Source: a virus
Direction: 5' to 3' (one strand)
Length of the DNA: 64,000 nt
IMG/VR virus record: IMGVR_UViG_3300035698_012970
Span: 24,152 to 88,151 of that record
Shown: positions 2 through 61,495 of the stretch, piece by piece
How the letters are laid out: every line of letters begins with the position of its first letter
Position numbering within the stretch: the stretch's first letter is position 1
Program-made: the position numbers and the translations under genes
The notes under the pieces: generated by a model
What the model was told of the DNA's origin: nothing
Databases searched by the model: none
What the model saw: only the letters and a program-made list of their open reading frames with translations

Positions 2-2722
2 CTATACTTTGGTATATTAGCACCTGGAGAAATAGTAGAACATACATTTGCTCAATCTATAGATATGACAGCAGCAGGTGATTATGAATTAACTTTCCAT
101 GCTAATATCTTAAACGATACATTACAAGTTCAGAATAATACTTTAAATGTAATTGTGACAAGTATTAATATGATAGAAAACTTTCCTTGGGTTGAGCCTT
201 TTGATAGTTTTCCTATTCCTGGGTGGTTTGCCAATACTATATCTGTATGGGTGCCAAATGTAGGACAATCGCCAAGTAATACTTGGTTATCATACGCAAA
301 CACAGCTGTATTTGCTAATATGTATTTTTGGCCTAATGGATGGGCAGATTATAGATCACCTCCAATATTATTAACAGAACATTCAACTTTATTATTTGAT
401 TGGTCAAGTGCATTTAGTCCATTAGGATTAGAAGATGCATTTGAGGTACAAATATCGACAGACTTAGGTGTTACTTGGACAACATTATGGTATCGTCAAG
501 GTATTGATTTACAATCAGAAGATGGCGGAACAAGTCAAGCTCCTGGAACTTATGCTACAGAAAGTTTTGACCTTACACCTTATACTGGTGAAATTGTTTA
601 CATTAATTTTAAAGCAATTACTGGTCATGGTGCTAATATATATGTAGATAATGTGTCGGTGTTACATAAAAACACACTTGATATAGAATTACTAGATATA
701 TACGCAAGTAATGAATGTGAATTAACAAATACTGAACATATTAATTTCTTAATTGATAATGATGGGTTACTACCTATCAATGAGTTTATGATCGTATACC
801 AAGTTAATGGTACATCATATCTTGAGAATGTAAACGCAACAATATTACCAACAGATTCACCATTTGTATACACATCAACTAATGTATTTGATATGTCAAT
901 TGCTGGTGATTATATAATAAGTGCTAACCTTATTTTGGTTGGTGATAATGAAGTAGATAATAAAGTTGAAACAATTCAAAGTATTTATACAATCGATACA
1001 TTCCCGTTTACTGAAGATTTTGAATTAGGGTATACAAACTACTTTTACTTTGGTGAGAATAAACATTCAGAGGTTGAAGTCTTTCAGATTGATACAACAT
1101 TAGCTCAAAGCTGGTATGAATTACAAGCGAACACATATTATAATGGTAACGTTGGTCACTTCGTTAAGATGTCAGCACAAGATGCTGGTGCATTTGGTTG
1201 GGCTGGTAATACATATGAACTAGCTTGGTCTTCAGAGAAACGTATCTCTGAAATATATAGTTGTCCTATTGATGCAACATCATTAACAACACTAGAATTA
1301 AAGGTAGACTTAAAACAATTCTTTAAATATCATACATACTATACTTGGTTTAGAGTATTAGTTAATGATAGTGTAATTGGTGACCTTGGTGGTAATACAA
1401 CGTACCAACCAGGAACTGAATACAGTGACGATCTTATACAGATCACATATAATCTAAACGAACATGCTGGAACAGTATTTAATCTTAAATTTCAAGCTGT
1501 AAATAAGTATGACGAGGACATATACCCAATGGGTAATATGACAACAATAGATAATATCACACTACAAGAGGTACCATTAGTAACTCAAGAACTTGATCTT
1601 AAAACGGGTTGGGGAATGATGTCAACCTACATTGAACCATTAGAACCTAGTTTTGATACCCTATTTGCAAATACAGCATCTGATATAATGTTAATCAAAG
1701 ATGATAATGGTATGGTTTATTGGCCATTATATAGTTTAAATATGATTGGTGATATTAGTATATTTGAAGGTTATCAAATAAAAACATATCATCAAATGAT
1801 GTATGATATGGTAGGTTATGCTGCTATCCCAGAAGAAAATGAATTTACAATTCCTTCAGGTTGGAGTATTATACCTTATATGAGAGATAATCCTGGTGCT
1901 GTTGATTTAGTATTAGCATCAATCACAAATGATATTATATTAGTTGGTGATGAGAATGGAATGGTTTATTGGCCATATTATGGTGTTAACCAAGTTGGTA
2001 ATATGCTTGATGGTGAAGGATATAAGATGAATACATTAAATTCAATTACGTTTACATTCCCATCAAATACAGACCCAGTGATTCTTGCTGGTTCAGGTAG
2101 TAATAAAACAGTAGTGAAGGATATGGTGAACTATGATAAAGTTGAACCGACTAGCAGTAATATGTATATCGCTATTGAATCTGATAAAATGCATTATGGT
2201 GATGAATTAGCGGTGTATTCAAACGATAAATTAATTGGTAGTACTGTTGTTCAGAAAAATGGTGTGGGTATTATAACAGTGTGGGGTAACGATGCTGATA
2301 TAAATGACCAGAAAGTAGCAAATGAAGGCGAAATTTACACGATAGAGCTATTCAGTTATGATGATGGTGCAACAAGTAAACTATCAAATTTGGTCTTTAA
2401 AATAGGTTCTGATGTATATGAAACAAATTCAATTGTAATCATTACAGATTTTTCAATTGAATTCGAAGCCAAACTATATCAAAGCTACCCAAACCCAACA
2501 AATGGTTTAACAACAGTTAAGTTTAGTATAACAAATAAAGACTTTGTTGTTATACAACTTTATGATAATTTAGGTAAAAATGTTTATACAATAGCACATG
2601 GCATGTATACTGAAGGTACACATACTATTGACATTAATATCTCATCACTTAAGCCTGGAAATTATCATTATATTATGACAACTCCTAGCGTTAAGTTACA
2701 GAAACAATTAACAATCATATGA
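2..2722 (+). CDS. Secreted surface protein with T9SS (Por) C-terminal sorting domain, 5' end missing
   Basis: The frame is open to the first codon of the window, so the true start lies outside; the first internal ATG is at 65. The visible part has two jelly-roll, choice-of-anchor-J-like segments (roughly residues 60-220 and 330-520), then a tandem pair of about 70-residue repeats sharing 'GMVYWP' (near residues 575 and 655). The last 80 residues read 'LYQSYPNPTNG...GNYHYIMTTP...KQLTII', the signature of the type IX secretion sorting domain, which directs export across the outer membrane and attachment to the cell surface in Bacteroidetes. It is the only large plus-strand gene here. It could be a phage-encoded surface or secreted protein, or host DNA next to an integrated element; the window cannot decide. 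Confidence 0.85.
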   Translation, partial: LYFGILAPGEIVEHTFAQSIDMTAAGDYELTFHANILNDTLQVQNNTLNVIVTSINMIENFPWVEPFDSFPIPGWFANTISVWVPNVGQSPSNTWLSYANTAVFANMYFWPNGWADYRSPPILLTEHSTLLFDWSSAFSPLGLEDAFEVQISTDLGVTWTTLWYRQGIDLQSEDGGTSQAPGTYATESFDLTPYTGEIVYINFKAITGHGANIYVDNVSVLHKNTLDIELLDIYASNECELTNTEHINFLIDNDGLLPINEFMIVYQVNGTSYLENVNATILPTDSPFVYTSTNVFDMSIAGDYIISANLILVGDNEVDNKVETIQSIYTIDTFPFTEDFELGYTNYFYFGENKHSEVEVFQIDTTLAQSWYELQANTYYNGNVGHFVKMSAQDAGAFGWAGNTYELAWSSEKRISEIYSCPIDATSLTTLELKVDLKQFFKYHTYYTWFRVLVNDSVIGDLGGNTTYQPGTEYSDDLIQITYNLNEHAGTVFNLKFQAVNKYDEDIYPMGNMTTIDNITLQEVPLVTQELDLKTGWGMMSTYIEPLEPSFDTLFANTASDIMLIKDDNGMVYWPLYSLNMIGDISIFEGYQIKTYHQMMYDMVGYAAIPEENEFTIPSGWSIIPYMRDNPGAVDLVLASITNDIILVGDENGMVYWPYYGVNQVGNMLDGEGYKMNTLNSITFTFPSNTDPVILAGSGSNKTVVKDMVNYDKVEPTSSNMYIAIESDKMHYGDELAVYSNDKLIGSTVVQKNGVGIITVWGNDADINDQKVANEGEIYTIELFSYDDGATSKLSNLVFKIGSDVYETNSIVIITDFSIEFEAKLYQSYPNPTNGLTTVKFSITNKDFVVIQLYDNLGKNVYTIAHGMYTEGTHTIDINISSLKPGNYHYIMTTPSVKLQKQLTII

Positions 2723-16553: not shown

Positions 16554-16586
16554 TAAAAGTAATAATACTTTTCGTAATAAAAAAAT
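16554..16586 (-). promoter_or_regulatory. T-tract/TAnnTTTG-class promoter
   Basis: ATTTTTTTATTACG, 11 nt, TACTTTTA. Lies in the 55-nt gap between purA-like and DUF932 genes; the upstream edge touches the purA-like stop codon. Confidence 0.85.
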
Positions 16587-17695
16587 TATGGGTAATCAAA
16601 AGTTATAGCAAATTCCATATCAAGGAAATCTTTGATATCCTTAACGAATTCAGTTTCTGTTTTGGGTCTATAAACTACACCATTTTTAGTGTAAGCCCAA
16701 TTATCTCTAACAAGATCTAAACATGTTATAACAATTGTTCTTCTCTTTGCATTTCTAATATAAGGATCTTTATTTACAGCGTGTTTTAATAAATCAAGAT
16801 CCAACATAGTTCTTCTGAACTCGCCTTGAAATTTATTACGTATATTTGTTTCGTATGGATTTTTCTTTATATCATATTTAATATGTTCATTTGTCATTGG
16901 TCCATTACCATGACGAGTTTGATACGCTCTTGTAACAAGATATAAATTAACATCACTATCATCACCTTCTAATATTTCAAGAACGTTAGTCATGCCAACG
17001 TTAGATCTAGTAACATGTGGAAAAAATCCATAATGTTGATCAAGTAATAATCCTTGTGAACTTTCAAAAATTAAGTTATTATATTCTTTATGAACATTAT
17101 CTCTAATTTCTATATAAGGACTATCTAACATTTCCTGTACTGCATTCAAGAACATAGTTACTCGATTATCCCTCATGTGAGGTGGCATATTATTATCTAT
17201 GTAATAATATTCCCTAAATAGTTTTATTTTAGTTTCAAGGACATCCCTATTTAATAAATCTCCTGCAGTCAACGAGAAGAATTTTTCTTCTCGTTCAAAT
17301 GTATTACCAACTCCTGTTCCGCATGTTCCATGTTTGGAATTCTCATAATCTATTACCTTATCTAATGGTAAAGTAACAGGAGCATCCGGGCTGATGTATA
17401 ACATAGGTTTAACCCCTTTTTCTAAGAGTAGATGTAGTTCCCTTATAAGACCCATTGGATCTACAGTACAATACTTAGTCCAATAAGTTGGGAGTCCTTG
17501 AAAACTACCAGAACCGAAGTTAGAAAAGATATGATATTCTTCTCCGTCTCTTACTCCGTGCCCAGCTTGTTGTCCCCCAGAGAATCTAATTACAATAGTA
17601 GATCCTTTATAAGCTGCAAGTGCGAGGGCATTGACAGTTCTGCCTTTGCCCTCGTCTCCAAATATTAACCCAATTACAACATCCCTTGTTCTCAT
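16586..17695 (-). CDS. purA: Adenylosuccinate synthetase-like enzyme (short form)
   Basis: 369 residues, against about 430 in bacteria. Recognisable motifs: 'FGDEGKGR' (P-loop-like, with catalytic Asp), 'SGGQQAGHG' (catalytic His), 'HGTCGTGVGN', 'FESSQGLLLDQHYGF', 'VTRAYQTRHGNGP'. PurA condenses IMP and aspartate with GTP on the way to AMP. The retained Asp in GDEGKG argues against PurZ, the diaminopurine-pathway variant in which this position is changed. It follows the first vWA gene without a gap. A phage role in purine supply is likely. Confidence 0.88.
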   Translation of the reverse strand: MRTRDVVIGLIFGDEGKGRTVNALALAAYKGSTIVIRFSGGQQAGHGVRDGEEYHIFSNFGSGSFQGLPTYWTKYCTVDPMGLIRELHLLLEKGVKPMLYISPDAPVTLPLDKVIDYENSKHGTCGTGVGNTFEREEKFFSLTAGDLLNRDVLETKIKLFREYYYIDNNMPPHMRDNRVTMFLNAVQEMLDSPYIEIRDNVHKEYNNLIFESSQGLLLDQHYGFFPHVTRSNVGMTNVLEILEGDDSDVNLYLVTRAYQTRHGNGPMTNEHIKYDIKKNPYETNIRNKFQGEFRRTMLDLDLLKHAVNKDPYIRNAKRRTIVITCLDLVRDNWAYTKNGVVYRPKTETEFVKDIKDFLDMEFAITFDYP

Positions 17696-25670: not shown

Positions 25671-26429
25671 TTATCTTTTTTCGAATGTTGGTTTTAACCA
25701 CATTCCATTTCCAAATACTAACTTAAGAAATCCAGGAATCATTGAATCAACAGTGCTAAGAAGCTCGATGGTTCCGATGGTATCATGCTTCATCATTTTA
25801 ATAACTTCTTCTCTGATTCTTTCACCACTTACTGTGTTCCCAAGCTTCTCTAAAATCTCTTCCTGTCTCATAGCGGCCCAAATGTCATCATGAATCATGA
25901 AACCTTTGGTGATTGAGAATCTAAGAGCTCTCAAAATTCTTAAAGGATCATCCATCATTGTTTGTTTTGCAGGTAGTGGTGTTCTTAAAACTCCTCTGCC
26001 ATTCTTAAGATCTCCAATCCCGTTGAATAAATCAATGATAGTTCCATCTTCTGCTTTTGCTAAAGCGTTTAGTGTGAAGTCCCTTCTAATAAGATCATCT
26101 TCTAATGTACCTAATACTAAGATAGGATGTCTTGTATTCTCGATATAGCCAACTTCTTTTCTGGCCATTACAAAGTCTGCAACCAAACCTTCATTCTTAT
26201 CTCCTTTTGGAAATTTTGCTCTGATCGTAAACATTTTAGGGGTTGATAAGAAGATTTCAAATCCTCTTTCTGTCATCCAGGTTTCCATGAAAGCAAATCC
26301 TTCTTCAACTGTTTTGTTTAAATCGTCCATCACAAAAGTGAAATCGATATCTTTGGAACTAATTCCTAAGATTCCATCTCTAATACATCCGCCAACGCGA
26401 TATAGTTTTGGCTCTTTGCTATCTGTCAT
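25671..26429 (-). CDS. cca: CCA tRNA nucleotidyltransferase
   Basis: 252 residues, shorter than bacterial enzymes. 'LYRVGGCIRDGILG', the catalytic 'DIDFTF', 'RRDFTLNALA' and 'DPLRILRALRF' are the class II nucleotidyltransferase motifs in the correct order. It adds or repairs the CCA 3' end, which most of the phage tRNAs in this window do not encode. First gene from the promoter at 26453-26485. Confidence 0.92.
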   Translation of the reverse strand: MTDSKEPKLYRVGGCIRDGILGISSKDIDFTFVMDDLNKTVEEGFAFMETWMTERGFEIFLSTPKMFTIRAKFPKGDKNEGLVADFVMARKEVGYIENTRHPILVLGTLEDDLIRRDFTLNALAKAEDGTIIDLFNGIGDLKNGRGVLRTPLPAKQTMMDDPLRILRALRFSITKGFMIHDDIWAAMRQEEILEKLGNTVSGERIREEVIKMMKHDTIGTIELLSTVDSMIPGFLKLVFGNGMWLKPTFEKR

Positions 26430-35658: not shown

Positions 35659-36330
35659 CTAATTATGTAAACTATGACAATTTGGACATAACATTTGTAA
35701 ATTATTTAACTTATGATTTCGGTTATTACCATCAATATGATGTAATTCTATACATAATTCTACCCTTTGCCATATACTTATTCCACATCTTTCACATTTA
35801 TTTTCTTTTATACCTTCCTTTAGCAATCTTTTCTTTAGTTTATGTGTTTGATAGTTTGGGTGTTTTCCTTCTAGAATTTCTTTCAGTTGAATTTTTCTGA
35901 AACTTTTCCTTCTAGTCCCCTTTAGTCCAACATTAGGTTGATAAACACCAAGATTCTTAGCTCTTTTTCTAAGAGTTAAAAAAGAAACCCCTAATGATTC
36001 TGCTGCTTGACCCATACTTAAACTTTCTTTACATGATTTGATTATTTCATCATCACTAACTTTCATATTATATTTTGCAACACACGTTTGACTACAAAAT
36101 TTGGGATTTTTGTTTGTTTTACTACCAGTAAAATATTCATTACAATATTTACACTTTACAGTTAGTCCTTCTTTAGTTATTCCTCTTTCTTTAAAGGTGT
36201 TACTTACTTTTTCGTTAATTTCCTTTCTGTTCTTTTTAGTCGAAAAGCATCTAGCACATTTTGTTGAACAAAATCTACCAGAGCCATATTCTCCCTCGTG
36301 CTCAATGCCACAATTTTCACAAATTCTCAT
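35659..36330 (-). CDS. HNH homing endonuclease with YGSGRFCS zinc finger
   Basis: 223 residues. N-terminal zinc finger 'CENCGIEHEGEYGSGRFCS' with a second CxxxC, shared with two other endonucleases here; a second Cys4 knuckle (about 58-85) and a helix-turn-helix-like part follow. The C-terminal 40 residues carry the HNH site: 'CERCG', 'LCIELHHIDGNNRN', 'LCPNCH'. It separates tRNA-Leu(GAG) from tRNA-Leu(TAA) and has its own GATATATA promoter, so it is a mobile insert in array A. Confidence 0.9.
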   Translation of the reverse strand: MRICENCGIEHEGEYGSGRFCSTKCARCFSTKKNRKEINEKVSNTFKERGITKEGLTVKCKYCNEYFTGSKTNKNPKFCSQTCVAKYNMKVSDDEIIKSCKESLSMGQAAESLGVSFLTLRKRAKNLGVYQPNVGLKGTRRKSFRKIQLKEILEGKHPNYQTHKLKKRLLKEGIKENKCERCGISIWQRVELCIELHHIDGNNRNHKLNNLQMLCPNCHSLHN

Positions 36331-49457: not shown

Positions 49458-49533
49458 TTGGAAGAGGGGGACTTGAACCCCCGAAACCTCTACATTATCA
49501 GTGTAGCGCTCTAACCAACTGAGCTACCTTCCA
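49458..49533 (-). tRNA. tRNA-Ile (GAT)
   Basis: Anticodon loop CTGATAA, acceptor TGGAAGG/TCTTCCA, A73, T-loop TTCAAGT. Confidence 0.94.
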
Positions 49534-50179
49534 AAGTGTTTATTATATTAGTAATTGATTCTATGATATTATCATCTGGCCATTTTATTCGATAAACTTT
49601 CCATCCTTGTGATTTCAATTTGGAATCTTTTTCTATATCAACTTTTTTTCTTTCTGGTTTATTGTGTTGTTGTCCATCAATTTCAATGACAATCTTATCT
49701 TCATGTAGTGCAAAATCAGCAAAATATTTACCAAATTTCCATTCATATTCATATTCTATACCCAAGCTATCTAACGTTCTAATTGCTATAGATTCTGGAT
49801 AAGACGGCTCTAGTTTTTTTCGAGTTTTCCAACCAAAAGAGACGTCACCATCAGCATGTCTTTTCTTAGCCATTATTGAATTCTTTTCTGCAATTTTTTC
49901 TTTGTAACCTGGTGTTTTCCATTTCAATTCAGCCGAACATGATCTAGAGCAAGTTTTCTGATTTTTTTTTCTCCATTTTACTTCAAACTCTTCCTTACAG
50001 TTCTGACAAATTAACTTTATTTTACCAGGTCCTTTATTAAACAACGTATCGGATACTTTCTTATTGAGATCTTCTCGATTTACTTTAGTAGCAAACCCTC
50101 TAGCGCATTTTATAGAACAAAATCTTCCGGAACCATAAGATCCATCATGTTTAACCCCGCAATTTTCACAAATCATCAT
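49511..50179 (-). CDS. VSR/DUF559-type homing endonuclease with YGSGRFCS zinc finger
   Basis: 222 residues. The first 40 residues repeat the zinc finger of the 35.7-kb HNH enzyme ('CENCGVKHDGSYGSGRFCS'); a second Cys4 unit follows (about 57-85). The C-terminal part has the very-short-patch-repair-like nuclease pattern: 'PESIAIRTLDSLGIEYEYEW', 'YFADFALHEDKIVIEIDGQQ', 'GWKVYRIKW'. Its 3' end overlaps tRNA-Ile by 23 nt. GATATATA promoter at 50198. Confidence 0.9.
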   Translation of the reverse strand: MMICENCGVKHDGSYGSGRFCSIKCARGFATKVNREDLNKKVSDTLFNKGPGKIKLICQNCKEEFEVKWRKKNQKTCSRSCSAELKWKTPGYKEKIAEKNSIMAKKRHADGDVSFGWKTRKKLEPSYPESIAIRTLDSLGIEYEYEWKFGKYFADFALHEDKIVIEIDGQQHNKPERKKVDIEKDSKLKSQGWKVYRIKWPDDNIIESITNIINTLEGSSVG

Positions 50180-50205: not shown

Positions 50206-50235
50206 ATTTGAACCTGTGACTTTTTAGTTATGTCG

Positions 50236-50311
50236 GCAAAGAGGGATTTGAACCCCCGTGTGACCAGCTAACCTTTCTACCGGATATCAGCCGGAGGGTA
50301 TACTTGCCGAT
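50236..50311 (-). other. tRNA-like element with a possible GAT anticodon
   Basis: Acceptor CGGCAAG/TTTGCCG and a T-arm (GGGGG, loop TTCAAAT, CCCTC) are intact. The D-arm is missing and the anticodon region (CCGG, CTGATAT..., CTGG) carries about 16 extra bases. A damaged or interrupted tRNA. Confidence 0.45.
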
Positions 50312-50541: not shown

Positions 50542-50614
50542 CGCTCATAGAGGGATTCGAACCCCCAACCCTTACGTTAACAGCGTAGCGCTCTACCATT
50601 GGAGCTATATGAGC
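50542..50614 (-). tRNA. tRNA-Asn (GTT)
   Basis: Ordinary class I cloverleaf; loop CTGTTAA, acceptor GCTCATA/TATGAGC, G73; one C-A mismatch at the end of the anticodon stem. Confidence 0.9.
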
Positions 50615-51291
50615 TAGTGTATAAACTTATATGCTTCTTGTATCCAATATTTCGGATTATTAAACATATCTTTCCATTTTATTCTCAAAATTTGCCAACC
50701 TTCTTCTATTAAAGATTGGTCTTTTCTTTTGTCTCGTTCAATATACTCTTCGAATCTTTGATGCTGTTCCCCATCAATCTCTATAGCTTTCTTTTTGTTA
50801 ACCCAAGCAAAATCTATAGCATATATTGAAACTGGATATTCAGTTTCGTACTCTTTATCCAGGAAATTATTTTCTATTACTCTTTCAAAAAATTCTTCTG
50901 GGTATGATTTTTCGTTATTCCACCTACTTTTACCTATATTCCAAGCCCTTCCATCTTTATGAGCTTTTTCCATTGATTCGCTAATCAAACTTTTACTAAA
51001 TTCACTATGTTTTCTCCCAATTCCAGATTTAGCAATTTTTGCTAGCCTTTCTTCTCTCTTTGGGTTCATCTTACATAACGTCTTATGTCCTCCTAGTTTC
51101 CACCCATTACTAAATTCATTTCCACAGTATTCACAAATCCAAGGACCTTCAGACTTTTTCCTAATCCTCTTTGATTTACCTTTACTTCTACCTTTCTTAT
51201 AACTTTCTCCTCTGTTGTGTGATGATACATGACCACCTAAAGATTCTTTCTTATCAAACTTTTTACCACAAATTTTACATTGATGTTTCAT
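50614..51291 (-). CDS. VSR/DUF559-type homing endonuclease with two zinc fingers
   Basis: 225 residues. Two C2H2-type fingers (CKICGKKFDKKESLGGH and CEYCGNEFSNGWKLGGH), a basic linker, then the VSR-like nuclease: 'SYPEEFFERVIENNFLDKEY', 'YAIDFAWVNKKKAIEIDGEQ', 'GWQILRIKW'. The nuclease part resembles that at 49.5 kb but the DNA-binding part is different. Its stop abuts tRNA-Asn. Late-type promoter 4 nt upstream. Confidence 0.9.
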   Translation of the reverse strand: MKHQCKICGKKFDKKESLGGHVSSHNRGESYKKGRSKGKSKRIRKKSEGPWICEYCGNEFSNGWKLGGHKTLCKMNPKREERLAKIAKSGIGRKHSEFSKSLISESMEKAHKDGRAWNIGKSRWNNEKSYPEEFFERVIENNFLDKEYETEYPVSIYAIDFAWVNKKKAIEIDGEQHQRFEEYIERDKRKDQSLIEEGWQILRIKWKDMFNNPKYWIQEAYKFIH

Positions 51292-51819: not shown

Positions 51820-52094
51820 TACCCCCGGAGAGACTCGAACTCTCAACCTACGGCTTAGCTTACCAGCTACAGTTTTCACTGCCACATATGTGTTTGTGGT
51901 CTGGACTATCCCTTCATCATATTAATTTAACTTAGATGACCGCCGTCTAGTCTCTACACCTTCCTATCGCTAGGCTTGGCTCGGGATTACCATTTTAAAG
52001 GCTTCCCCGAATTTGACGGTTTACATTTTATAAATTTCTCTATAAAAGCTCCTATTCGAAGGCCGTTGCTCTTAATCCATTGAGCTACAGGAGC
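51820..52094 (-). tRNA. tRNA-Arg (TCT), interrupted by a group I intron
   Basis: Exon 1 52059-52094 ends ...ACGGCCTT; exon 2 51820-51858 begins CTAAGCCGT. Joined, they give anticodon stem ACGGC/GCCGT with loop CTTCTAA (TCT), acceptor GCTCCTG/CGGGGGT and T-loop TTCGAGT. First tRNA of array B, 5 nt after the boxA-like element. Confidence 0.92.
51859..52058 (-). ncRNA. Group I intron in tRNA-Arg anticodon loop
   Basis: 200 nt, between positions 34 and 35 of the tRNA, the site used by tRNA-Leu(UAA) group I introns. Core motifs in order: 'AAACCGTCAAATTCGGGGAA' (P3/P4), 'GTAATCCCGAGCCAAGCC' (P6), 'GTGTAGAGACTAGACGG' (P7/P3), 'GAAGGGATAGTCCAGACC' (P7 3' strand). Last intron base is G, as required. 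No ORF inside, so it depends on endonucleases in trans or is fixed. Confidence 0.93.
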
Positions 52095-52818: not shown

Positions 52819-54945
52819 TTAAAATTTAATCTTTACTACTCTCTTAAAATTACCTGTAAGCTTAACTATTACCTCGTCACGTACAGTCGAATTGAAACCC
52901 AATCCTGTTAATTGCTTATCTACAGGTTCCAGCATAGAACTATTTCCTAGTACTTCCATTACCTTTTTATGTTTCAATAAATCTTGTATTAGATTCTCAT
53001 TATGGAAACCCCTTATTTTGTTTGGAGTTTTACAATTATCAAGCATAAACATATAATGCTTATTACCAACCTGATTCTCACCCCAATGATTTGGTGAAAG
53101 ACACATAAGATTTACTTTGTGGAATTGGTTAGTTTCAAGTCCATATATCTCTTTAGATGATGCAGTTTCCGGTAATTTATGATTGATTGAAAACTCACCA
53201 TTCTTTAGTGTTACTTCTGCTATTGGAACATTTCCTTTTACCGCATTGTTATATTCATATGAATATAATTCACCACCAAATTCAATTTCAGCTCTAAATC
53301 CTTTAGAACCACGGGAAGCAAATTGGTTTATCCAAAACTTATATACACCATCTGGCATTCTAGATAAAGTACCCCATGTGATGTTTTCCACAATATCTCT
53401 ATTATTGAATCTATTTGGAGTTGTGATATCAACATCTAAATTACCTAATGTGTTAGGATCACGTTTATTTGAATATCCTATAGATTTACAGTTTGGTTGC
53501 ATACACCAAGCATCCAAATCTGAATTATCGCTAGGATCATTCTCTCCCCACATTATACTAAACCTAAGTACTCCATCGACTTTTCCACCCTTGGTTTTAA
53601 CTGCTTCCTTAATCTGGCTTTTACCAGCTAGGTTACCATTAAACGTCCACGAGTAATTGTTATTCCATTTAAAAATAGGTTTACTTTCCCCATTTTTAGT
53701 GGTTGTCATTGTAACCAGGTTATTTTCGTGAGAGTTCTTTAACAATACCTCTATTGAACTACATCCTGGTAAAATATCTTTCATGAACTTATCAATTTGA
53801 ACTTCCTCAACATTATCAAATTCATTTCTTTTATGGCGTGATTTAGAGGATTTAACATTGTCAAATATAGATACTTTTTTAACCTCACCATCCCCGACAT
53901 TACTATGTAAAATTTCAGATACCTTAATGTCATCAATCGTAGCAAACCTTCTATCAAATGATTCAAGGAAATTGTTATCCTCGACGAATTTTTGTGCCTC
54001 TTCTATTTGTCTCTTAGTAATAGGAGCAACTGCTTTATGATAATTTGCAGGATCTACTCGTTTGTTCCAACTAAGACAAGCTTTATTAAGTTCTTCTCCT
54101 TCTGCTAACTCTGTGCATAGTACACCAATAAGATTGTTCTTAAACTTAGCAATAGTTTCTGGCATTTCATAGGTAGATACCCAAAGCCAATTATCTCTTT
54201 TGGCATTAGTTAGTAAAGTATATTCTTTCTTTGATTTGATTGCAGCATCAACGGAATGTAAATGTGATGTTCCATTAAGTAAGCTATCTTGATTAATAAG
54301 ATCTTTTACTAATTCCAAAGTATCTAATGGTATTTCGACCATAGCTCTTTGGAATACGTTTTTCTTATCCCTATAATCAGCCATAATAGCTTCAACTGAT
54401 CTTCCAGAATTACTTACAAATTTCTTTGGTAAATCTAAATGGAAATGGTCAAAAGTTCTTATCTCGTTTGGTTTTACTACTCCATATAATTCTGCTTCGT
54501 CTTTAGTATACCTTTTAACGTTTCTTGCTGTTCCAAGTCTAAACACTTTGTTATTCTTAGTACAAGATTCATAAGGTAAACTGTTTAACTCATTATATGT
54601 TTCAAAAAATACTTCTTTTATCTTAGAAGTTTTGATTCCGATAGAAAGAGCTTTTGCTGAATCCATATACTCTATATCAGTTTCAACATCAAATAATGAA
54701 ATAGTATTGTAATCGGAATCGATTGCTACTATATTACCATATCTCCTGATGAAATTTTTACAGTGATTACAATTATGAGTACTGCTTTCTGGGTCTCTAA
54801 AAATTGGGTTATTTTCTTTACTGAATGAAGAAATGTATAAATCCCACACTTCCCTACCTGTCAGTTCTACTCTGAATAGTTTACCTGTTTTTAACATTTT
54901 AGTAAACTGTTTTTGTATTACATCATTAAATTTTGATATTCCCAT
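52819..54945 (-). CDS. Large protein with C-terminal DUF2135/YfaP-like domain (708 aa)
   Basis: Second-largest gene here, first from the promoter at 54978-55010. Residues about 1-440 are uncharacterised, with a CNHC pair near 59 and a helical linker about 320-400. Residues about 455-600 read 'LRFSIMWGENDPSDNSDLDA', 'IGYSNKRDPNTLGNLDVDIT', 'IVENITWGTLSRMPDGVYKF', 'AEIEFGGELYSYEY', a pattern of the DUF2135/YfaP-like beta domain often paired with vWA proteins. Two vWA proteins at 17.7 and 19.8 kb may be partners (inference). Function unknown. Confidence 0.7.
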   Translation of the reverse strand: MGISKFNDVIQKQFTKMLKTGKLFRVELTGREVWDLYISSFSKENNPIFRDPESSTHNCNHCKNFIRRYGNIVAIDSDYNTISLFDVETDIEYMDSAKALSIGIKTSKIKEVFFETYNELNSLPYESCTKNNKVFRLGTARNVKRYTKDEAELYGVVKPNEIRTFDHFHLDLPKKFVSNSGRSVEAIMADYRDKKNVFQRAMVEIPLDTLELVKDLINQDSLLNGTSHLHSVDAAIKSKKEYTLLTNAKRDNWLWVSTYEMPETIAKFKNNLIGVLCTELAEGEELNKACLSWNKRVDPANYHKAVAPITKRQIEEAQKFVEDNNFLESFDRRFATIDDIKVSEILHSNVGDGEVKKVSIFDNVKSSKSRHKRNEFDNVEEVQIDKFMKDILPGCSSIEVLLKNSHENNLVTMTTTKNGESKPIFKWNNNYSWTFNGNLAGKSQIKEAVKTKGGKVDGVLRFSIMWGENDPSDNSDLDAWCMQPNCKSIGYSNKRDPNTLGNLDVDITTPNRFNNRDIVENITWGTLSRMPDGVYKFWINQFASRGSKGFRAEIEFGGELYSYEYNNAVKGNVPIAEVTLKNGEFSINHKLPETASSKEIYGLETNQFHKVNLMCLSPNHWGENQVGNKHYMFMLDNCKTPNKIRGFHNENLIQDLLKHKKVMEVLGNSSMLEPVDKQLTGLGFNSTVRDEVIVKLTGNFKRVVKIKF

Positions 54946-61384: not shown

Positions 61385-61400
61385 GATTTCTAATAATTTG

Positions 61401-61495
61401 TGACCCCTCTGGGGCTCGAACCCAGGACCCCCTGATTAAATCTTGATATTTCTTAACTAAAGTCAGGTGCTCTAAGCCAACTGAGCTAAGAGGTC
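61401..61495 (-). tRNA. tRNA-Lys (TTT) with 20-nt insertion in the anticodon loop
   Basis: Acceptor GACCTCT/AGGGGTC, stem CCTGA/TCAGG, T-arm CTGGG/CCCAG. Without 61439-61458 the loop would be CTTTTAA, a normal Lys loop. The inserted 20 nt (AGTTAAGAAATATCAAGATT on the minus strand) is too short for a group I intron. Confidence 0.75.

What the first reader, a model, noticed from the sequence alone, without database searches (positions are those of the whole stretch)
51820..52094. Group I intron inside a phage tRNA-Arg(TCT)
All core group I motifs appear in order, the last intron base is G, and exon joining restores a perfect anticodon stem-loop. Insertion is between positions 34 and 35, the place used by the tRNA-Leu(UAA) introns. 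Introns in tRNA genes of phages are rare. It lacks an ORF, while VSR-type endonuclease genes lie within 3 kb and could act in trans.
Basis: partly seen in the sequence, partly recalled or inferred. Interest (0 to 1): 0.82.

Follow-up and report, generated by a model that had tools for sequence, protein, structure and literature searches.

The report
Self-splicing intron in phage arginine tRNA
A phage arginine-tRNA gene is split in its anticodon by a 200-base self-splicing RNA intron of a type known from bacteria; a 2014 review knew of none in phage tRNA genes, yet a search of public virus sequences finds many.

Summary
Confirmed. Window 52094-51820 (minus strand) is a tRNA-Arg(UCU) gene split between U34 and C35 by a 200-nt group I intron (52058-51859). 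Rfam Intron_gpI scores 81.5 bits. A covariance model I built from other viral tRNA introns, without this sequence, scores 214.9 bits (E 6.5e-48) over its full length. [quoted passage not shown] Splicing itself is inferred, not shown. The claim that phage tRNA introns are rare is not supported. A second motif found 57 viral tRNA-Arg(UCU) candidates. Unannotated copies sit in tRNA-Leu of Agrobacterium phage Atu_ph07 and of 595-kb and 735-kb phages. Bacteria carry the same tRNA-Arg(UCU) intron (known in Beggiatoaceae), so this is a new member of a known kind in a host type that a 2014 review called empty. Trans-homing by the neighbouring Vsr-like endonucleases has no support: each abuts another tRNA. 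Homologues of a different, HNH endonuclease in this window are encoded inside related phage tRNA-Arg introns.

The parts
52059..52094 (-). 5' exon of tRNA-Arg(UCU), ends ...C32 U33 U34
   Evidence: sequence; ARAGORN on the spliced form
51859..52058 (-). group I intron (IC3-like), 200 nt, no ORF, last base G
51820..51858 (-). 3' exon of tRNA-Arg(UCU), begins C35 U36 A37; no CCA encoded
52049..52051 (-). internal guide sequence GAG, pairs with C32-U33-U34 (P1); U34.G wobble at the 5' splice site invariant in 30 of 30
52052..52054 (-). UAG, pairs with the 3' exon CUA at 51858-51856 (P10)
51943..52019 (-). P3 (52019-52015 with 51947-51943) enclosing P4, P5, P6, P6a
51904..51952 (-). P7 (51952-51948 with 51908-51904), pseudoknotted with P3; P8 lies between
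51862..51900 (-). P9.0/P9 domain: ACCA (51900-51897) with UGGU (51865-51862), holding two hairpins
50614..51291 (-). zinc-finger plus Vsr-like (DUF559/MTES_1575) endonuclease gene, abuts tRNA-Asn; putative free-standing homing endonuclease
49511..50179 (-). zinc-binding plus Vsr-like (DUF559) endonuclease gene, its stop codon inside tRNA-Ile
35659..36330 (-). HNH endonuclease gene inside another tRNA cluster; homologous to HNH ORFs inside phage tRNA-Arg introns
25671..26429 (-). tRNA nucleotidyltransferase-like gene that could add CCA to the phage tRNAs

Best explanation
It is an ORF-less, subgroup IC3-like group I ribozyme inserted between U34 and C35 of a phage-encoded tRNA-Arg(UCU). In the pre-tRNA the intron's GAG guide pairs with C32-U33-U34 (P1, U.G at the splice site), P7 binds a guanosine cofactor that attacks after U34, and the terminal G of the intron then directs attack by U34 on the 3' junction, with UAG pairing to CUA (P10). 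Exon joining restores the anticodon loop CUUCUAA. The ends are then trimmed and CCA is added by host or phage enzymes. The mature tRNA reads AGA/AGG, about 80% of the arginine codons sampled in this phage. The element is probably a neutral passenger that has lost, or never had, its homing endonuclease. Shown: anatomy, conservation, covariation. Inferred: splicing, charging, neutrality.
For: RF00028 81.5 bits; independent model E 6.5e-48; pair conservation and covariation, with invariant P1 U.G and P7 co-varying A-U/U-A; P10 first pair follows exon base 35 (A with U 46 of 48, C with G 21 of 21, U with G 4 of 4, G with C 2 of 3), a link between intron and 3' exon expected only if splicing is under selection; cloverleaf restored; many relatives at the same site in viral and bacterial tRNAs; AGA+AGG 239 of 300 Arg codons in 27 sampled ORFs.
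Against: No RNA data. The acceptor stem has three G.U pairs and P2, P5 and P6a are short, so efficiency could be low. The tree of about 207 columns is poorly resolved, so the origin is open.
Confidence: 0.9

Rival explanations
1. A decayed group I intron that no longer splices, so the tRNA-Arg gene is a pseudogene.
For: No ORF; three G.U pairs in the acceptor stem; a nearby tRNA-Lys body carries a 20-nt anticodon-loop insertion that looks non-functional.
Against: Every catalytic-core position invariant in the alignment is intact here, all drawn helices pair in this sequence, and it scores among the best family members. The exons form an intact tRNA.
Confidence: 0.06
2. The intron homes in trans through the Vsr-like endonucleases encoded 0.5-2.6 kb away.
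For: Two such genes lie in the same tRNA array.
Against: They abut tRNA-Ile and tRNA-Asn, not tRNA-Arg; a homologue in L313 abuts another tRNA, as expected of free-standing homing genes. Endonucleases within phage tRNA-Arg introns are PDDEXK_5 or HNH. The window gene related to those is the HNH gene 15.5 kb away.
Confidence: 0.08
3. The intron is kept because an unspliced anticodon loop cannot be cut by host anticodon nucleases, or because splicing times tRNA release.
For: The insertion splits the anticodon; phage tRNAs are known to evade tRNA-targeting defences by anticodon-loop changes (title and abstract of PMC10264068).
Against: The same introns occur in bacterial tRNAs at the same site, where that reason does not apply directly; no sequence test available.
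Confidence: 0.04
4. The contig, or this gene, is bacterial rather than phage.
For: Bacteroidota genomes carry such introns (17 of 297); a T9SS-sorted protein lies at 65-2722; the terminase hit in this record is weak (E 4.1e-6).
Against: An 88-kb IMG/VR record with 19 tRNA hits, several homing endonucleases and phage-type genes; the gene next to the tRNA (52819-54945) has 496 phage records with homologues, best 61% in a 462-kb phage and 51-53% in Cellulophaga phages.
Confidence: 0.03

Closest known systems
Bacterial tRNA-Arg(UCU) group I introns (Beggiatoaceae: Thiomargarita, BOGUAY; PMC4853749)
   Same: Same tRNA, and on my alignments of other bacterial copies the same 34/35 site, P1, P10 and core; Gammaproteobacteria, Bacilli, Bacteroidota and Chloroflexi copies found here.
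   Different: Found in bacterial chromosomes; many carry a PDDEXK_5 ORF. The paper reports them as interruptions without structure.
Cyanobacterial and chloroplast tRNA-Leu(UAA) introns (subgroup IC3; own knowledge)
   Same: Same site after U34, same CUU/GAG P1. By identity the nearest introns found here are viral tRNA-Leu introns, 79% over 189 columns.
   Different: Different tRNA and a phage host.
Azoarcus tRNA-Ile(CAU) and Agrobacterium tRNA-Arg(CCU) introns (IC3; own knowledge)
   Same: Very similar core sequence (recalled, not aligned here).
   Different: Other tRNAs, host chromosomes.
Phage introns in protein genes with a related core (capsid of Pelagibacter phage HTVC120P and of KM23-C739; DnaB of Kolpuevirus)
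   Same: The tRNA-intron model matches them full length at 69-166 bits.
   Different: Inserted in protein genes.

Membership tests
Group I intron | Conserved catalytic core with P3/P7 pseudoknot, P4-P6, P8, P9 | tested here: met
[quoted passage not shown]
   30 of 30 U.G
Group I intron | Intron ends in G | tested here: met
   G at 51859
Group I intron | P10 pairing with the 3' exon | tested here: met
   UAG/CUA; covaries with the anticodon
Group I intron | Guanosine-dependent self-splicing | not testable with these tools
   needs RNA
Subgroup IC3 tRNA introns | tRNA anticodon-loop host and no P5abc-type extension | tested here: met
   34/35 site; P5 is a 3-bp hairpin; IC3 lacks P5a-d (PMC11835236)
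Subgroup IC3 tRNA introns | Best match to an IC3-specific covariance model | not tested
   subtype models were not on hand
Mobile intron with its own homing endonuclease | Endonuclease ORF in a peripheral loop | tested here: not met
   no ORF in the 200-nt intron; ORFs exist in relatives L050, L157, L176

The most novel reading that the evidence does not exclude
Phage tRNA genes hold a large, largely unannotated population of IC3-like group I introns at 34/35 in Leu(UAA), Arg(UCU), Lys(UUU), Thr(UGU) and other U34 tRNAs. It has moved between isoacceptors by retuning P10 and passes between phages and bacteria, with phages as a main carrier behind the patchy bacterial distribution.
Probability: 0.4. 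Interest if true: 0.65.

Novelty: new member of a known kind. Interest (0 to 1): 0.5.

Why it matters
A 2014 review states that all phage introns known then were in protein genes despite many phage tRNA genes (PMC3984707). The sequences here show that phage tRNA introns exist in number and had escaped annotation, including in the cultured phage Atu_ph07. [quoted passage not shown] Counts of phage tRNAs, and arguments about missing Leu, Arg or Lys tRNAs in phages, are therefore biased. The pairing between intron and anticodon gives a testable rule for how one ribozyme can enter different tRNAs.

Tried and rejected
Megablast of 48-64 kb against phage records: no match. Tree of intron cores: virus and bacteria labels cluster (5 changes against 37.5 shuffled), but the two sets were gathered with different motifs, a constrained search found a better tree than the free search, and AU tests reject neither one origin of all Arg introns nor the window grouping with bacterial Arg introns; I therefore claim no origin or isoacceptor switch from the tree. 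Search for relatives of the tRNA-Lys insertion: none. The two Vsr-like genes had few relatives (4 and 3 loci), none seen inside a tRNA intron; ARAGORN's intron mode gave implausible calls there. My first P10 count mis-chose the guide sequence and was redone, which kept only one bacterial row. Literature searches found no report of group I introns in phage tRNA genes, but the library holds open-access papers only.

Full report
CHECK. On the minus strand 52094-51820 reads as a tRNA whose anticodon loop is interrupted. Removing 52058-51859 leaves GCTCCTG TA GCTC AATGGATTAA GAGC A ACGGC CTTCTAA GCCGT AGGTT GAGAG TTCGAGT CTCTC CGGGGGT A, which ARAGORN calls tRNA-Arg(tct) and ViennaRNA folds as a cloverleaf. 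ARAGORN without intron mode does not list it. Rfam Intron_gpI covers its full model at 81.5 bits, E 3.6e-19, and is the only such hit in the 88,151-base virus record.

STRUCTURE. I aligned 30 viral introns with their exon edges and counted pairs for P1, P2, P3, P4, P5, P6, P6a, P7, P8, P9.0, P9a, P9b and P10. 88.8% of cells pair; slid controls give 28-43%. The 5' splice-site U.G is invariant. P7 is paired in all rows, with one pair switching A-U to U-A in 11. P10 pairs covary with the anticodon: UA 19, GC 6, CG 1, GU 1 at the first pair. A separate count links the base before the GAG guide to exon base 35 (A:U 46 of 48, C:G 21 of 21, U:G 4 of 4). A covariance model from 22 introns without the window scores the window 214.9 bits, E 6.5e-48, end to end, and finds nothing else in the record.

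RELATIVES IN VIRUSES. A 20-base core motif reached the 120-locus limit in IMG/VR. ARAGORN intron mode put 84 in tRNA genes: Leu(UAA) 59, Arg(UCU) 7, Met 5, Lys(UUU) 3, Thr(UGU) 2 and single others, some of which are frame-shifted calls of the same site. A second motif ending in the Arg 3' exon gave 57 viral loci, 49 called tRNA-Arg(tct) directly. Of 47 records searched (G000, 40 with the Arg motif, six others), 17 carry a terminase match, about ten of the Arg-motif records strongly. Among named phages, ARAGORN finds intron-bearing tRNA-Leu(UAA) in Agrobacterium phage Atu_ph07, and in the 735-kb (LR756501) and 595-kb (LR756511) phages. None is annotated; the Atu_ph07 paper does not mention introns. 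Rfam at gathering misses these three while the new model scores them 175, 225 and 105 bits respectively (the 735-kb copy, L303, was among the model's training rows, the other two were not). The nearest introns to the window by identity are viral tRNA-Leu (79% over 189 columns), Thr and Arg.

RELATIVES IN BACTERIA. The same Arg motif also reached the limit in GTDB genomes, 85 called tRNA-Arg(tct) directly, mostly Gammaproteobacteria and Bacilli. 17 of 297 Bacteroidota genomes carry such introns, in Leu and Arg tRNAs among others. Beggiatoaceae cases were reported earlier. The kind is therefore known in bacteria. The tree does not settle the direction of transfer.

ENDONUCLEASES. The window intron has no ORF. 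Related phage tRNA-Arg introns carry PD-(D/E)XK (L157) or antisense HNH (L050, L176) genes; L176's contig also has a terminase. The two Vsr-like genes near the intron abut tRNA-Ile and tRNA-Asn. The window's HNH gene at 35659-36330 resembles the L176 and L050 ORFs (29% over 163 aa, E 1e-8), so it is the better, still weak, candidate for action in trans.

FUNCTION. AGA and AGG are 239 of 300 arginine codons in 27 sampled ORFs. The record also encodes a tRNA nucleotidyltransferase and a tRNA-His guanylyltransferase, so its tRNAs are likely matured. Splicing is required for the phage to gain from this gene, but was not observed.

NOVELTY. Mechanism, site and structure are known. Phage tRNA genes as hosts were reported as absent in 2014, and I found no later report in the open-access library. 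I file it as a new member of a known kind, with the wider phage population as the point of interest.

Noticed in passing
window 61400-61495 (-): A well-formed tRNA body whose anticodon loop (CTTTAGTTAAGAAATATCAAGATTTAA) would be tRNA-Lys(UUU) with about 20 extra bases at or near 34/35; too short for a ribozyme, possibly a collapsed intron; no relative in IMG/VR.
   Followed up: partly
window 49511-50179 and 35659-36330 (-): Two endonucleases share a 49% identical 90-residue N-terminal zinc-binding domain but carry different nuclease domains (Vsr-like and HNH), suggesting domain swapping among tRNA-associated homing genes.
   Followed up: partly
window 50233-50309 (-): A weak, D-arm-poor tRNA-like sequence (26.7 bits) just upstream of the Vsr-like gene.
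   Followed up: no
window 16586-17695 (-): Adenylosuccinate synthetase-like gene; PHROG names it 2-aminooxy adenylosuccinate synthetase, but the NCBIfam PurZ model matches only weakly (29 bits, cut-off 300), so a diaminopurine genome is not shown.
   Followed up: partly
window 65-2722 (+): 885-aa protein with a type IX secretion sorting domain, pointing to a Bacteroidota host.
   Followed up: no
L309 753-1114; L303 920-1210; L305 923-1709: Unannotated intron-bearing tRNA-Leu(UAA) genes in Atu_ph07, LR756501 and LR756511; the last intron holds a probable HNH ORF.
   Followed up: partly
L307 949-1126 and 1662-1835; L302 949-1161: Introns in or beside phage capsid genes match the tRNA-intron model end to end (93-166 bits), suggesting one intron family in both gene types.
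   Followed up: no
L063: One viral contig carries two intron-bearing tRNAs in a row, Arg(UCU) and Leu(UAA).
   Followed up: no
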